Source: JBBIVP01 sp037439705 [NCBI: bacterium] (GTDB lineage Bacteria; JBBIVP01). Taken from it: DNA of 6,025 nucleotides. Position numbers and translations under genes: made by a program. Shown one piece after another: positions 954-6,025 of this stretch (positions are counted from its first letter, which is position 1; every line of letters starts with the position of its first letter). The stretch covers positions 1 through 6,025 of the forward strand of contig JBBIVP010000131.1 of the NCBI GenBank assembly GCA_037439705.1, read 5' to 3'. The notes beneath the pieces were generated by a model. The model ran no database searches. It was not told the DNA's origin and was given only the letters and a program-made list of their open reading frames with translations.

Positions 954-960
954 CCTCCTT
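954..960 (-). promoter_or_regulatory. Ribosome binding site of pdo
   Basis: On the minus strand AAGGAGG is followed by six bases (AAAAAG) and the ATG of pdo. This near-perfect Shine-Dalgarno site fixes the start codon and contrasts with recO, the first gene of the pair, which has none. Confidence 0.8.
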
Positions 961-979
961 TTTTAAATTTTGATACTTT

Positions 980-1726
980 TCACACCAAAAAGGTTTCAAA
1001 AATTTCTGGAATTATTTTGAGAGCGATATCAAATTGCATTTTTGTTACCATGTTGATAAGACTTCCTATTTCAATTATCTGGGTTTTTGTTAGGCTCAAT
1101 CTATGTAAAATTTCTGGCTGAAAAAAGAACTTTTCCAGAACTTTCATCGTTGCTTTTGAAAGCCTTATTCCTCCGCTCTCACATTTTAAACAGAAAAACC
1201 CGCCGCTTCTGGGATGAAAAACTCCATTTTCCTTTATTTTTTTTAAACATCTCACACATTTTATATCCGAAGGCATAACTCCTTCCTTCTGGAGGATGAA
1301 AATTTCGGAGTAAAGTAAAATTTTCAACAAATTTTTCCCTTCTGATGAATCAGCGGAGGAGTAAAATGAAAGGGCGGTTTCGTATAGAGATTTATCATAT
1401 CTTTCAAAAGGCTTTATTATTGAGAGCAAAAATTTTGCAAAATATCCACACATCAAGAATTTTTTCCAGTTCCTTCTTATGTTTACAAATCTCCTCTTAA
1501 TATCTGCACTTTCAAGGATGAATTTTCCATATAACCTTGAAGAACTCATCCAGACTTCTATTTCATTGAAAAGTTCAAGGGTATTTACAAATCTGTGAAG
1601 GCTTTTCTTTCCTCCCTTGGCAATAAGTGTGAGTTTTCCAAATTTGTTGCTGATACCTTCTACCTCAAAGTCAATATCTCCCACATCCCTTTTTGAAAGA
1701 ATGAGCATACGAGTTTTGTAAAACAT
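980..1726 (-). CDS. recO: DNA repair protein RecO
   Basis: A 248-residue recombination mediator. In the family, RecO works with RecR (and RecF) to displace SSB and load RecA on single-stranded gaps, and it anneals complementary strands. Residues 1-80 fit the N-terminal OB-fold, with the family-like opening RMLILSKRDVGDIDFE and then FGKLTLIAKGGKKS (compare the VLxxxxYGExD and GKxxxxAKGARKxxS patterns of RecO proteins). The rest is the helical C-terminal domain, with a zinc site C157-x2-C160-x18-C179-x2-C182 inside the motif CVRCLKK...GGFFCLKC. Length is normal for RecO (about 240-260). The ATG at 1726 gives a normal N-terminus, but no Shine-Dalgarno site precedes it; instead a -10-like TAAAAT lies six bases upstream, suggesting a leaderless message. 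It is transcribed divergently from dnaJ and leads into pdo. Sequence is divergent, but architecture and zinc knuckle make the call good. Confidence 0.88.
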   Translation of the reverse strand: MFYKTRMLILSKRDVGDIDFEVEGISNKFGKLTLIAKGGKKSLHRFVNTLELFNEIEVWMSSSRLYGKFILESADIKRRFVNIRRNWKKFLMCGYFAKFLLSIIKPFERYDKSLYETALSFYSSADSSEGKNLLKILLYSEIFILQKEGVMPSDIKCVRCLKKIKENGVFHPRSGGFFCLKCESGGIRLSKATMKVLEKFFFQPEILHRLSLTKTQIIEIGSLINMVTKMQFDIALKIIPEIFETFLV

Positions 1727-1732
1727 AAGAAA

Positions 1733-1761
1733 ATTTTAACAATTTTTTTAACTAACTTCAC
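1733..1761 (-). promoter_or_regulatory. Candidate recO promoter giving a leaderless mRNA
   Basis: On the minus strand TAAAAT (1738 to 1733, 5/6 to TATAAT) lies six bases before the recO ATG, which would put +1 on the A of that ATG. Seventeen bases further upstream is GTGAAG (1761 to 1756), only a 3/6 match to TTGACA, so the -35 is weak. A TAAAAT is common in A+T-rich DNA; the main support is its exact placement and its likeness to the dnaJ promoter on the opposite strand. Confidence 0.4.
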
Positions 1762-1795: not shown

Positions 1796-1824
1796 TTGAC
1801 TTTATGGCGGATAAATACTATAAT
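1796..1824 (+). promoter_or_regulatory. Strong sigma-70-type promoter of the dnaJ-htpX-clp operon
   Basis: TTGACT (1796-1801), a 17-base spacer, then a perfect TATAAT (1819-1824): 11 of 12 consensus bases at ideal spacing. The predicted +1, seven bases after the final T, is 1831, the A of an in-frame ATG. The -10 and most of the spacer lie inside the longest dnaJ reading frame (from 1804), so the 1804 ATG would not be in this transcript. No CIRCE inverted repeat (TTAGCACTC-N9-GAGTGCTAA) was seen, so HrcA-type heat control is not evident here. Confidence 0.75.
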
Positions 1825-1830
1825 TTTAAT

Positions 1831-2892
1831 ATGAGGATGAAAGATTATTATTCCATACTCGGAGTTTCAAGAAATGCTACACAGGAAGAGATAAAGGAGG
1901 CTTACAAGCGTCTTGCAAAGCAGTACCATCCGGACAGGAATCCGGGTGATAAGTCGGCAGAGGAAAAGTTCAAGGAAATTAATGAAGCATACCAGGTTCT
2001 TGGAGACCCACAGAAAAGGGCGCAATATGACAGAGCATATCAGTTTGGATTCAACTCCTTCGGTGATGACTGGAAAAGAACTGATTTCAACTTTGACTTT
2101 TTAAATTTTGACTTTTCAAATCTGGGAGATATTTTTGATACCTTCTTTGAGAGCACAGAGACAAAGGTTCCTGAAAGAGGAGAGGACATAGAGGTAGAAA
2201 AGGAAATTTCCCTTGAAGATGTATTTCATGGAAGGAGTTTTGAAATTGGTTATACAAGGCTTCAGCCATGTTCTGTATGCGGAGGAAGGGGTTATAAAAC
2301 TGGAAAAAGCGGAGTTTGTGCAACCTGTGGGGGTAGAGGATATGTGAAAGCATCACACGGATTATTTTCCATAAAGCAAACCTGCCCCACCTGTAAGGGA
2401 ACAGGGAAAAGAGGAAGCTTTTGTTCCTCCTGCGTAGAAGGAAGGGTTCAGGGTTATGAGAGAATAACAGTAAAAATCCCAAAGGGAATAAGAGACGGAG
2501 AAAAATTGAGGATTCAGGGGAAGGGAAATGCCGGGAGATTTGGAGGAGAACCAGGCGACATCTATATAAAGGTAAAACTTATTCCCCATCCTCTTTTTGA
2601 AGTAAATGGAAACGATGTGATTTATCAGCTTCCCATTTCCGTATTTGATGCAATTCTCGGGAAGGAAGTTGAAGTTCCAACCCTTGACGGAAAAATTTCT
2701 TTACGGATTCCTCCCGGAACAGATAGCGGAACAAAACTTCGCGTAAAGGAGAAGGGGCTTCCCGATAGAAATGGTAGAATGGGAGATATGTTCGTTCAGA
2801 TAAAAATCATGGTTCCAAAGAACCTTTCTGAGGAAGAAAAGAAGGATTTTGAAAGGTTGAAAAATACCCTTTTGAGGAATAAAAAACTTTAA
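1831..2892 (+). CDS. dnaJ: Chaperone protein DnaJ (Hsp40, type I)
   Basis: Cytoplasmic co-chaperone that binds unfolded protein and stimulates DnaK ATPase. With the start at 1831 it has 353 residues. The J domain spans about 5-70 ([12 protein letters not shown], with H33-P34-D35). A Phe/Asp/Asn-rich linker (about 71-110) replaces the usual Gly/Phe region. Zinc motifs are C147/C150, C163/C166, C185/C188 and C198/C201; the fourth reads CSSCVEGR, one residue short of CxxCxGxG. Two C-terminal substrate-binding domains follow, including a [15 protein letters not shown] strand region. A longer frame begins at ATG 1804, but that start has no Shine-Dalgarno site, lies inside the promoter and adds nine atypical residues; from 1831 the N-terminus (MRMKDYY) matches the length of the usual MxxxDYY. 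ATG 1837 is also possible. It is first in an operon with htpX. Slightly shorter than E. coli DnaJ (376 residues). Confidence 0.93.
2089..2118 (+). repeat. Two-copy 15-bp tandem repeat inside dnaJ
   Basis: Positions 2089-2103 and 2104-2118 match at 13 of 15 bases and encode NFDFL then NFDFS. The repeat lies in the linker after the J domain and accounts for part of its unusual phenylalanine and aspartate content. It looks like an in-frame duplication of one five-codon unit. Confidence 0.6.
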
Positions 2893-2901
2893 GGAGGTGA
2901 T
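2890..2901 (+). promoter_or_regulatory. Twelve-base Shine-Dalgarno site of htpX overlapping the dnaJ stop
   Basis: TAAGGAGGTGAT is complementary over 12 bases to the usual 3' end of bacterial 16S rRNA (ATCACCTCCTTA). Its first three bases are the dnaJ TAA stop. Nine bases separate GGAGG from the TTG start of htpX at 2907. The exceptionally strong site decides that weak start codon and probably offsets it. Confidence 0.85.
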
Positions 2902-2906
2902 GTAAA

Positions 2907-3755
2907 TTGAGAAATACTCTTAAAACCACAATCCTTCTGGCTTTTCTCACAGGGCTTTTCATAGTAATAGGAAATCTGCTTGGAGGTAATGAAGGGATGA
3001 TATTTGCGTTAATTCTTGCTGCAGGAATGAACTTTTTCTCATACTGGTTTTCCGATAAACTTGTTCTTGCTTTTATGAGGGCAAAAGAGGTTACTCCAAA
3101 CGAGGCACCATGGCTTCATTCAATGGTAGAAAAATTCGCTCTCAGTGCAGGAATTCCGAAACCAAAGGTTTACATAGTTCAATCACCTTCTCCAAATGCG
3201 TTTGCAACAGGAAGGAATCCATCACATTCAGCAGTGGCAGTCACAACCGGAATTATTGACCTCTTATCAAGGGAGGAACTTGAAGGAGTTCTGGCGCATG
3301 AGATAGCCCATGTAAAAAACAGGGATACACTGATAAGTGCTGTTGCAGCAACCATTGCTGGAGCAATAATGGTCCTTGCCAATATGGCAAGGTGGGCGAT
3401 AATATTTGGAGGTGGAAGAAGAGATGAAAGAAACAGGGGAGGAGAATTTTTTCTCCTTTTAATGCTAATTCTTGCTCCTCTTGCAGCTACACTCATTCAA
3501 CTTGCCATATCCCGTTCAAGGGAGTATGAAGCGGATGCGGATGGAGCAAAGATAGCAGGAAATCCGATGGGACTTGCGAAAGCCCTCCAGAAACTCGCAT
3601 ACGCTTCAGCGAGGATTCCAATGAATGTATCACCCCATTACTCACATCTTTTTATAGTCAATCCTTTATCAGCAAAGGATATATTTATTAAACTTTTCAG
3701 CACACATCCACCAATTGAAGAAAGGATAAGAAGGCTTATGGAGATGAAGTTCTAA
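2907..3755 (+). CDS. htpX: HtpX-type membrane zinc metalloprotease (peptidase family M48)
   Basis: A 282-residue inner-membrane protease that in the family cleaves damaged or misassembled membrane proteins on the cytoplasmic side. Likely membrane segments are residues 6-26, 29-47, about 141-165 and 178-200. The catalytic zinc motif is H131-E132-I133-A134-H135 followed by VKNRDTL, and the third ligand is expected at E206 in [11 protein letters not shown] (the ExxxD motif, E206 to D210). The C-terminal [14 protein letters not shown] is a standard HtpX ending. Length matches the family (about 280-300). The start is TTG, chosen because a 12-base Shine-Dalgarno match lies directly upstream and the ATG at 2900 meets a stop at once. 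It sits 14 bp after dnaJ and 2 bp before the Clp ATPase gene. In E. coli htpX is stress-induced; induction here is inferred from operon context. Confidence 0.95.
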
Positions 3756-3757
3756 AA

Positions 3758-6025
3758 ATGGATATGTTTGACCTAACATCCTTTAAAGAGAGGCTCTCGG
3801 AGAGGGCTCAAAGGGTTATAAAGTATTCAATAGAGGATGCCCAGAGGAGAAATCATTATTACCTCGGCGTTGAGCATATTTTTCATTCAATTTCTGTCGT
3901 TGAATTAAAGCTTTTTAATCTTGTGTTTGAAAGCGTTGGAGTTGACCCAAATATGGTGAGAAAGGTAATAAATAACTATCTTGATACGCCAAAACAATAC
4001 CTCGGAGTTGGAGTAAAAATTACACCGGAGGTAAAAATGCTATTTCAGAATGCATTTGAGAATTCAAGGAATTCGGGTAGGTACCTGATTACATCTGTTG
4101 ACCTATTTATTGCCATTTTTCAGAATTCAAGGTGGATTCCAGCAAGAATAGTTAAGGAGTTCGGCTTAACCCCTCAGGAGGTGATTAACGGGATTGTATT
4201 TCATGCCAAAAGGCGTGAGATTTTTGAAAAAGAATTAAAGAAAAAATTTGAACTTCCTCCATTCCTCAAGCAGTTTGGGATTAACCTTAACGAACTTGCC
4301 TATTTTGACCGTATACCTCCTCTTATAGGAAGAGAAAAAGAATTAGAAGAAGTAGTCTCAATTCTCTGTCAGAAAGAAAGATGTAATTCAGCCATGCTGG
4401 TTGGTGAAGCAGGTGTTGGGAAAACTGCTATTGCAGAGGGGCTTGCAAGAAAGATAGAGTTTGAGCCCGAAGCCCTTCCTCCACAGATAAGAAACAAACA
4501 GATTGTAAACATCCAGATGAATTCTGTAGTTGCTGGAACTGTCTTCAGGGGAATGTTTGAGGAAAGGATGGAGAAAATAATAAAGGAATTAAAGGAAAGT
4601 AAAAATTACATAATGTTCGTTGATGAAGCACATACCATTATAGGAGCAGGTTCCGCAATGGGAGTTCCCGCAGATGCAGCAAATATCCTGAAGTCCTCCC
4701 TATCAAAGGGAGAAATCCAGATGATAGGAGCAACAACTTATGAAGAATACAGAATGTTCATTCAGGAGGATTCAGCACTTTCAAGAAGGTTTCAGGTAGT
4801 TTATGTGGAGGAACCAAGTTTAGAAGATACAAGGAAAATTCTCAGGGAATTAAAGGGAAGGTTTGAAACTACATACAATATAAAAATTTCAGATTCCGCA
4901 ATAGATACAACAATTGAACTTTCAAAAAGATATTCAAGGCACATAAGGCTGCCGGATAAGGTTATAAGGTGGATGACAAATGCGTGCGTTAGAACCCAGT
5001 TAAACCACCCTCATGAGCCCCTTTCCTCTGAGGACATATATCATGTTGTTTCAAGGGATGCAAAAATTCCCTTCGTTATGGTAAAAAGGGATGTTCTTGA
5101 GACCTTTAAGGACTTTGAAACCGCTATAAGTAAAAGAATTGTGGGGCAGAGACATATTATAGAAGCGCTCGGGAAAAAACTGAGGATGAACAAAGGACCA
5201 CTCAAAGAAAACTTCAAAAGACCCGATGGAGTTTTTCTCTTCCTTGGTCCCACAGGGGTGGGAAAAACCGAGACCGCAAAGGCTATTGCGGAATTCCTTT
5301 ACGGAGATGAGGACAGGATGATAAGGATTGATATGAGCGAATATACAGATGGAACGGTTTCTGTGGACAAACTTATAGGAATGCCGAGAGGAATAGCTGG
5401 GTCTGAAATGGGTGGAGTTTTAACGAGCAAGATAAGGGAAAATCCATCAAGTGTGGTTCTTCTTGATGAGATTGAAAAGGCGCATCCACTTGTGTTCAAT
5501 CTGTTCCTTCAGGCTTTTGATGAAGGATTTATTACCGATGGAAGGGGAAAGAGGGTGTATTTCAGCGATGCAATTATTATAATGACATCAAATGTCGGGT
5601 CCTCTGAGATAGAAAAGACGCTTCATCCTCCCGGATTTATAAGTGAGGAAAACCTGATAAAAAAGAACCTGTGTGATTTGATAAAGAAACAGGCAGAAAA
5701 TTACTTTTCTCCAGAATTTTTGAACAGAATAGATGAAGTTTTTGTGTTTTCTCCACTTACACAGGAAGAGGTTGAGGAGATTGCAAGGCGTTACCTCAAC
5801 AGTATAAACGCACAGCTTTCAAGCTTTGGTAAGAGCCTTGAAGTCAGCAATGAAGCTATAAAACTTCTTGCAAAGCTTGGATACAGTATGAAATACGGTG
5901 CCAGATTTTTAAAGAGGACAATTGATGAAAAGGTGAAAGTTCCCATTACCCTAATGTGGAACAGTGGAAACCTTTTCAATGTTGATGCTGAAGGAAACGA
6001 GATTTCGGTAAAAGAATCAAAAAGC
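3758..6025 (+). CDS. ClpA/ClpC-like AAA+ unfoldase, open at right edge
   Basis: A class I Hsp100/Clp ATPase with two AAA+ rings; 756 codons run without a stop to the window edge. Family members thread proteins through a hexamer pore, often into ClpP. Residues 8-150 form a double Clp_N repeat (LGVEHIF at 36-42). D1 has Walker A GEAGVGKT (216-223), pore loop F263-R-G, Walker B D289-E290 and arginines R343/R344. D2 has Walker A GPTGVGKT (497-504), Walker B D570-E571, arginine finger R657 in FLNRID and sensor-2 R716 in GAR. There is no ClpB/ClpC coiled-coil insertion, so the layout is closest to ClpA (758 residues in E. coli), and the true C-terminus is probably close. Oddities: D2 pore loop GIAG (545-548) instead of GYVG; candidate ClpP loop P625-G-F627; LPDKVIRWMTNAC (398-410) instead of LPDKAIDLIDEAG. 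ATG 3758 is 2 bp past htpX with only a distant GGAG (3740-3743), so translational coupling is likely; ATG 3764 is an alternative. Confidence 0.9.
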   Translation, partial: MDMFDLTSFKERLSERAQRVIKYSIEDAQRRNHYYLGVEHIFHSISVVELKLFNLVFESVGVDPNMVRKVINNYLDTPKQYLGVGVKITPEVKMLFQNAFENSRNSGRYLITSVDLFIAIFQNSRWIPARIVKEFGLTPQEVINGIVFHAKRREIFEKELKKKFELPPFLKQFGINLNELAYFDRIPPLIGREKELEEVVSILCQKERCNSAMLVGEAGVGKTAIAEGLARKIEFEPEALPPQIRNKQIVNIQMNSVVAGTVFRGMFEERMEKIIKELKESKNYIMFVDEAHTIIGAGSAMGVPADAANILKSSLSKGEIQMIGATTYEEYRMFIQEDSALSRRFQVVYVEEPSLEDTRKILRELKGRFETTYNIKISDSAIDTTIELSKRYSRHIRLPDKVIRWMTNACVRTQLNHPHEPLSSEDIYHVVSRDAKIPFVMVKRDVLETFKDFETAISKRIVGQRHIIEALGKKLRMNKGPLKENFKRPDGVFLFLGPTGVGKTETAKAIAEFLYGDEDRMIRIDMSEYTDGTVSVDKLIGMPRGIAGSEMGGVLTSKIRENPSSVVLLDEIEKAHPLVFNLFLQAFDEGFITDGRGKRVYFSDAIIIMTSNVGSSEIEKTLHPPGFISEENLIKKNLCDLIKKQAENYFSPEFLNRIDEVFVFSPLTQEEVEEIARRYLNSINAQLSSFGKSLEVSNEAIKLLAKLGYSMKYGARFLKRTIDEKVKVPITLMWNSGNLFNVDAEGNEISVKESKS

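What the first reader, a model, noticed from the sequence alone, without database searches (positions are those of the whole stretch)
1796..1839. dnaJ is probably leaderless and starts at 1831, not 1804
A TTGACT-17-TATAAT promoter places +1 exactly on the A of ATG 1831. The upstream ATG at 1804 lies in the promoter spacer and has no Shine-Dalgarno site. Starting at 1831 puts the HPD motif at residues 33-35 and the DYY at 5-7, the usual positions in DnaJ. A major chaperone gene with a near-consensus promoter and no 5' leader is unusual and would be read by initiation directly at a 5'-terminal AUG.
Basis: partly seen in the sequence, partly recalled or inferred. Interest (0 to 1): 0.6.

Follow-up and report, generated by a model that had tools for sequence, protein, structure and literature searches.

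The report
Probable leaderless start of dnaJ
The gene for the chaperone DnaJ appears to start right where its messenger RNA begins, without a ribosome-binding leader; this is a known way for bacteria to start genes, and here it mainly corrects where the gene begins.

Summary
TTGACT (1796-1801), 17 nt, TATAAT (1819-1824) is the only 11-of-12 sigma-70-type match in the window, and its expected +1 is the A of ATG 1831. That exact geometry arises in 8e-5 of dinucleotide shuffles of the intergenic region (post hoc). Start 1831 gives MRMKDYY, the usual N-terminal length of DnaJ homologues; none of 80 homologues has an in-frame start at the place of 1804.

New support: the divergent recO start (ATG 1726) has the same layout, TAAAAT at -12..-7 and no Shine-Dalgarno (SD) site, while the operon-internal PDO and htpX genes have AGGAGG.

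Limits: no RNA or protein data; no genome of this organism and no close relative was found, so the conservation test could not be done. Distant dnaJ and recO homologues do not share the fused promoter and start. Leaderless genes with a -10 box about 12 bp upstream are documented in many bacteria, delta-Proteobacteria and Aquificae included (PMC3160421). So this is a new member of a known kind and a useful start-site correction.

The parts
1796..1801 (+). -35 hexamer TTGACT of the predicted dnaJ promoter
   Evidence: 5 of 6 to TTGACA, spacer 17
1819..1824 (+). -10 hexamer TATAAT
   Evidence: 6 of 6; at -12..-7 of ATG 1831
1831..1831 (+). predicted transcription start and first base of the dnaJ start codon
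   Evidence: inferred from -10 spacing; not mapped
1831..2892 (+). dnaJ coding sequence with the preferred start (MRMKDYY...)
   Evidence: TIGR02349 387.3 bits, cut-off 377.2; homologue N-termini
1804..1830 (+). in-frame upstream stretch (ATG 1804), judged promoter spacer and not coding
   Evidence: no SD; no start at that place in 80 of 80 homologues
1837..1839 (+). alternative in-frame ATG (MKDYY)
   Evidence: one homologue, G215, starts MKDYY
1733..1738 (-). -10-like TAAAAT at -12..-7 of the divergent recO ATG (1726)
   Evidence: 5 of 6 to TATAAT, no SD; inverted repeat with the dnaJ start region, 80%
980..1726 (-). recO, probably leaderless too
   Evidence: TIGR00613 58.7 bits, cut-off 48.7; start layout
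2891..2900 (+). SD of htpX (AAGGAGGTGA), overlapping the dnaJ stop
   Evidence: sequence
2907..3755 (+). htpX, TTG start, second gene of the operon
   Evidence: NF002826 369.3 bits, cut-off 369
3758..6025 (+). clpA-like gene, third in the operon, runs off the window
   Evidence: TIGR02639 606.8 bits, below its cut-off 993.15; starts 2 nt after the htpX stop
954..959 (-). SD core AGGAGG of the operon-internal PDO gene
   Evidence: sequence

Best explanation
dnaJ is the first gene of a dnaJ-htpX-clpA-like operon transcribed from a near-consensus housekeeping-type promoter whose start point is the A of ATG 1831. The mRNA then begins with AUG and is read by ribosomes binding directly at the 5'-terminal AUG. 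The downstream htpX is read by an SD site and the clpA-like gene probably by coupling. The divergent recO is probably started the same way as dnaJ. Shown: hexamers, spacing, absence of SD, homologue N-termini. Inferred: promoter activity, the exact +1, leaderless translation, the operon.
For: Promoter and geometry; shuffle frequencies 8e-5 exact and 4.9e-4 relaxed. Start 1831: NF008035 and NF010894 align profile position 1 to codon 1831; the start codon stands at the place of 1831 in 20 of 80 homologues and within 2 codons of it in 76 of 80; 24 of 24 readable dnaJ genes beside clpA-like genes have Met 2-4 residues before the K/R of the KDYY-like motif; 10 of 11 more read M/V-x-x-K-D. recO has TAAAAT at the same place; both starts at 5/6 or better occur in 6.1e-4 of shuffles. 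Internal genes PDO and htpX have AGGAGG. The layout equals the TANNNT signal about 12 bp upstream that marks leaderless genes in PMC3160421.
Against: No mapped 5' end. At the homologous start, 0 of 11 dnaJ and, among candidate starts shown, 0 of 19 recO homologues has more than 3 of 6 -10 matches at -12, though these are distant and many sit in other gene contexts. The recO -35 is weak (3 of 6). Of five distant genomes of or near the same phylum only one, G362, shows a clear -12 peak. ATG 1837 cannot be excluded, and other profiles align differently (NF010885 begins at 1837; NF010872 would begin further upstream). The statistics are post hoc and rest on one site and five genes.
Confidence: 0.75

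Rival explanations
1. Same promoter and transcript, but translation starts at ATG 1837 (MKDYY), leaving a 6-nt leader AUGAGG; still a near-leaderless mRNA.
For: G215 DnaJ starts MKDYY; a start at the place of 1837 is the furthest within -6..+1 in 14 of 80 homologues; NF010885 begins there.
Against: A 5'-terminal AUG two codons upstream in frame is expected to be used first; more homologues have starts at -2 or -3 than at 0 (20 and 22 against 14). No SD at usable distance: AGG abuts ATG 1837.
Confidence: 0.13
2. A longer transcript from an upstream promoter carries a leader without SD, and 1831 or 1837 is still the start.
For: A weak 9-of-12 match TTCACA-19-TAAAAA lies at 1757-1787; genes without SD but with leaders exist in bacteria (general knowledge).
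Against: The 11-of-12 site at 1796-1824 is far stronger and placed at the leaderless distance.
Confidence: 0.08
3. The annotated-style longest start, ATG 1804, is real and the protein begins [16 protein letters not shown].
For: In-frame ATG; MADKYY loosely resembles DnaJ N-termini; 1804-1830 aligns weakly with the DNA from 1831 on (shuffle p 0.053).
Against: No SD; needs another promoter; 0 of 80 homologues has an in-frame start there and only 1 of 80 has an ATG at -8..-16.
Confidence: 0.04

Closest known systems
TA-led leaderless genes of bacteria (Zheng et al. 2011, PMC3160421; search passages and section 7 read)
   Same: TANNNT -10 box about 12 bp upstream of the start codon, no SD; known in delta-Proteobacteria (8 of 33 genomes, mean 15.8%) and Aquificae (2 of 5, mean 26.5%)
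   Different: Here a single gene (plus recO) in an organism without a held genome; no genome-wide count possible
Leaderless transcripts of C. acetobutylicum (PMC4533764, passages)
   Same: Leaderless mRNAs are monocistronic or first in their operon, as here
   Different: Mapped by RNA-seq; the passages seen do not call its dnaJ leaderless
Short-leader hsp70 mRNA of haloarchaea (PMC4574771, abstract and outline)
   Same: A heat-shock chaperone mRNA with almost no leader
   Different: Archaeal system, 4-nt leader, tested by experiment

Membership tests
Leaderless (TA-led) bacterial gene | TANNNT about 12 bp upstream of the start codon | tested here: met
   TATAAT at -12..-7 of ATG 1831
Leaderless (TA-led) bacterial gene | no SD before the start | tested here: met
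   upstream of 1831 is AT-rich without AGGAGG-like words
Leaderless (TA-led) bacterial gene | first gene of its transcription unit | tested here: met
   upstream neighbour recO is divergent
Leaderless (TA-led) bacterial gene | genome-wide excess of the signal in the same organism | not testable with these tools
   no genome held for the window; in five distant genomes clear in one
Leaderless (TA-led) bacterial gene | mapped 5' end at the start codon | not testable with these tools
   needs RNA
Bacterial DnaJ (TIGR02349) | profile score above cut-off | tested here: met
   387.3 bits, cut-off 377.2
Bacterial DnaJ (TIGR02349) | J domain with HPD | tested here: met
   PF00226 107.7 bits; HPD at 33-35 from 1831
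Bacterial DnaJ (TIGR02349) | four CxxCxGxG zinc motifs | tested here: inconclusive
   three canonical and a degenerate fourth (CSSCVEGR) in the translation; PF00684 30.6 bits, below its cut-off 32.7

The most novel reading that the evidence does not exclude
This poorly sampled lineage starts many transcription units without leaders: both divergent units seen here do so, each with a -10 box at -12..-7 of its ATG. Its heat-shock operon would then begin the chaperone by direct ribosome binding at a 5' AUG and the protease gene htpX by SD, which could keep DnaJ made when SD-led initiation falters under stress.
Probability: 0.2. Interest if true: 0.4.

Novelty: new member of a known kind. Interest (0 to 1): 0.22.

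Why it matters
It corrects the start of a core chaperone gene by nine residues and suggests that a poorly sampled bacterial lineage uses leaderless initiation for operon-first genes. The principle is known; the gain is annotation accuracy and a clean divergent pair (recO/dnaJ) as a test case.

Tried and rejected
Close relatives were sought and not found. RecO was searched in 395 genomes of the phylum of L001's genome, 55 handles, two of them virus records, three classes of 41, 46 and 46 genomes and a second phylum draw of 384 that returned no better hit. The clpA-like protein was searched, DnaJ in 40 handles. A viral-contig scan gave 36 DnaJ loci, none close over its length; a near-identity plasmid search found nothing.

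CIRCE and sigma-32-like sites near the start: best 10 of 18 and 8 of 13, nothing convincing. A duplication origin of 1804-1830: shuffle p 0.053, not pursued. Gene starts in the distant genomes were taken as the first in-frame ATG of long ORFs, without a gene caller, which blurs any peak. The offset column printed has a sign slip in its query-start term; I used the printed translations instead.

Full report
What is there. The window holds a protein disulfide oxidoreductase gene (PDO, minus strand, 297-947), recO (minus, 980-1726) and, on the plus strand, dnaJ, htpX (TTG 2907) and a clpA-like gene that runs off the end. recO and dnaJ diverge. Between the ATG of recO (1726) and ATG 1831 lie 104 bp with 21% GC.

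The promoter. TTGACT 1796-1801 and TATAAT 1819-1824 with spacer 17 are confirmed. It is the only site with 11 of 12 matches at spacer 16-18 on either strand of the window. Promoter-like sites as a class are not enriched (11 found, 13.7 expected, sd 3.4), so the weight rests on strength and position. In 100,000 dinucleotide shuffles of the intergenic region the exact geometry reached 11/12 in 8e-5; allowing 1 nt and spacers 16-18, 4.9e-4; an 11/12 site anywhere, 1.1e-2. These are post hoc figures.

The start codon. The frame has ATG at 1804, 1831 and 1837. From 1831 the protein begins MRMKDYY, with DYY at 5-7 and HPD at 33-35 (direct count). Two NCBIfam DnaJ models (NF008035, NF010894) align their first position to codon 1831; NF010885 aligns its first position to 1837; NF010874 and NF010871 would begin one codon after 1831 and NF010872 further upstream by extrapolation. 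In the 80 DnaJ homologues, the furthest in-frame ATG (or GTG/TTG where no ATG) within -6..+1 codons of the place of 1837 falls at -6 (2), -5 (2), -4 (9), -3 (22), -2 (20, the place of 1831), -1 (11) and 0 (14). Ten of 80 have any in-frame start codon at -8..-16, one of them ATG, none at -11, the place of 1804. Of 33 clpA-like loci given to, 24 showed a J domain; in all 24 a Met codon stands 2-4 residues before the K/R of the KDYY-like motif. In one search, 10 of 11 dnaJ genes read M/V-x-x-K-D and one MKDYY. MRMKDYY fits the majority length.

The neighbour. recO has TAAAAT at -12..-7 of its ATG and no SD. The two start regions appear as an 80% inverted repeat, CATAAGAAAATTTTA / TATAATTTTAATATG. 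Both starts scoring 5/6 or better at that exact place occurs in 6.1e-4 of shuffles. The recO -35 is weak (3 of 6 at spacer 17, read from the sequence). Of the genes that lie inside operons, PDO and htpX have AGGAGG; the clpA-like start (ATG 3758) lies two bases after the htpX stop with only a distant GGAG. So the two operon-first genes lack SD and carry a -10 box at the leaderless distance, while two of three internal genes have a strong SD. The sample is five genes.

Relatives. No genome of this organism is held. The nearest DnaJ found is 50% identical (L001, record titled Deltaproteobacteria). The nearest full-length clpA-like protein is 58%; 56 of 63 genomes of that class match at E 1e-250 or better. 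RecO reached 84 bits at best in 395 genomes of that phylum (283 matched at 1e-5) against 44 bits at best in 55 other handles (27 matched), so the organism probably belongs to or near that phylum; no named taxon was established. In 16 of 20 clpA-like loci of that class a dnaJ gene lies directly upstream of the clpA-like gene, without htpX between, so the dnaJ-clpA link is old.

Conservation at this distance is negative. At the homologous start 0 of 11 dnaJ genes, and among the candidate starts shown 0 of 19 recO genes, has more than 3 of 6 -10 matches at -12. Many of these genes sit in other contexts, so this neither refutes nor supports the claim for the window organism.

Leaderless signal in distant genomes. 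First in-frame ATGs of operon-first ORFs were tested for TATAAT-like (5/6) hexamers at -12 (209-400 kb per genome). G362: 7 of 113 (one of the seven also has an SD word), mean 0.77 at other offsets, p 1.4e-5; its internal genes 3 of 150, p 0.033. G262: 3 of 139, p 0.2. G128: 1 of 100 (6 at -13). G019: 1 of 105. G001: 0 of 55. So one of five shows it clearly and the two genomes of L001's class (G001, G019) do not.

Literature. Zheng et al. 2011 (PMC3160421; passages and section 7 read) report TANNNT signals about 12 bp upstream of starts as leaderless genes in 207 of 953 bacterial genomes, including delta-Proteobacteria (8 of 33, mean 15.8%) and Aquificae (2 of 5, mean 26.5%). In C. acetobutylicum leaderless transcripts are monocistronic or operon-first (PMC4533764, passages). 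Haloarchaeal hsp70 has a 4-nt leader (PMC4574771, abstract and outline). A search for leaderless with dnaJ found 83 papers, of which 15 were listed; none of the listed titles and abstract beginnings names a leaderless bacterial dnaJ, and 68 were not seen. Searches with Thermodesulfobacterium (one paper), Desulfovibrio (two papers) and Deinococcus with heat shock (eight papers) showed nothing closer in their listings. This is no proof of absence.

Verdict. ATG 1831 with a 5' end at the AUG is the best reading (0.75); ATG 1837 is the main rival. It is a well-formed example of a documented class, of modest interest.

Noticed in passing
window 1724-1738 and 1819-1833: The divergent recO start mirrors the dnaJ start (TAAAAT-TTTCTT-ATG against TATAAT-TTTAAT-ATG), so recO is probably leaderless too.
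   Followed up: partly
window 1711-1727 and 1774-1790: A 17-nt direct repeat, 82% identical, in the recO/dnaJ intergenic region and recO start; a regulator site or chance.
   Followed up: no
window 1831-6025; loci L117, L124-L142: dnaJ sits directly upstream of a clpA-like gene in 16 of 20 loci of a distant class; in the window htpX is inserted between them.
   Followed up: partly
window 3758-6025: The clpA-like protein is 58% identical to proteins of that class but scores below the ClpA, ClpB and ClpV cut-offs; it may be a separate Clp subfamily.
   Followed up: no
window 2270-2450: The fourth zinc motif of this DnaJ is degenerate (CSSCVEGR in place of CxxCxGxG).
   Followed up: no
L271 14116 (+) and L324 2582 (+): A J-domain-like protein (294 and 311 aa, 45% identical) has TAAAAT at -12 of its ATG and no SD in both genomes G362 and G262, a second leaderless-looking J-domain gene; its DnaJ Pfam score is below the cut-off.
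   Followed up: partly
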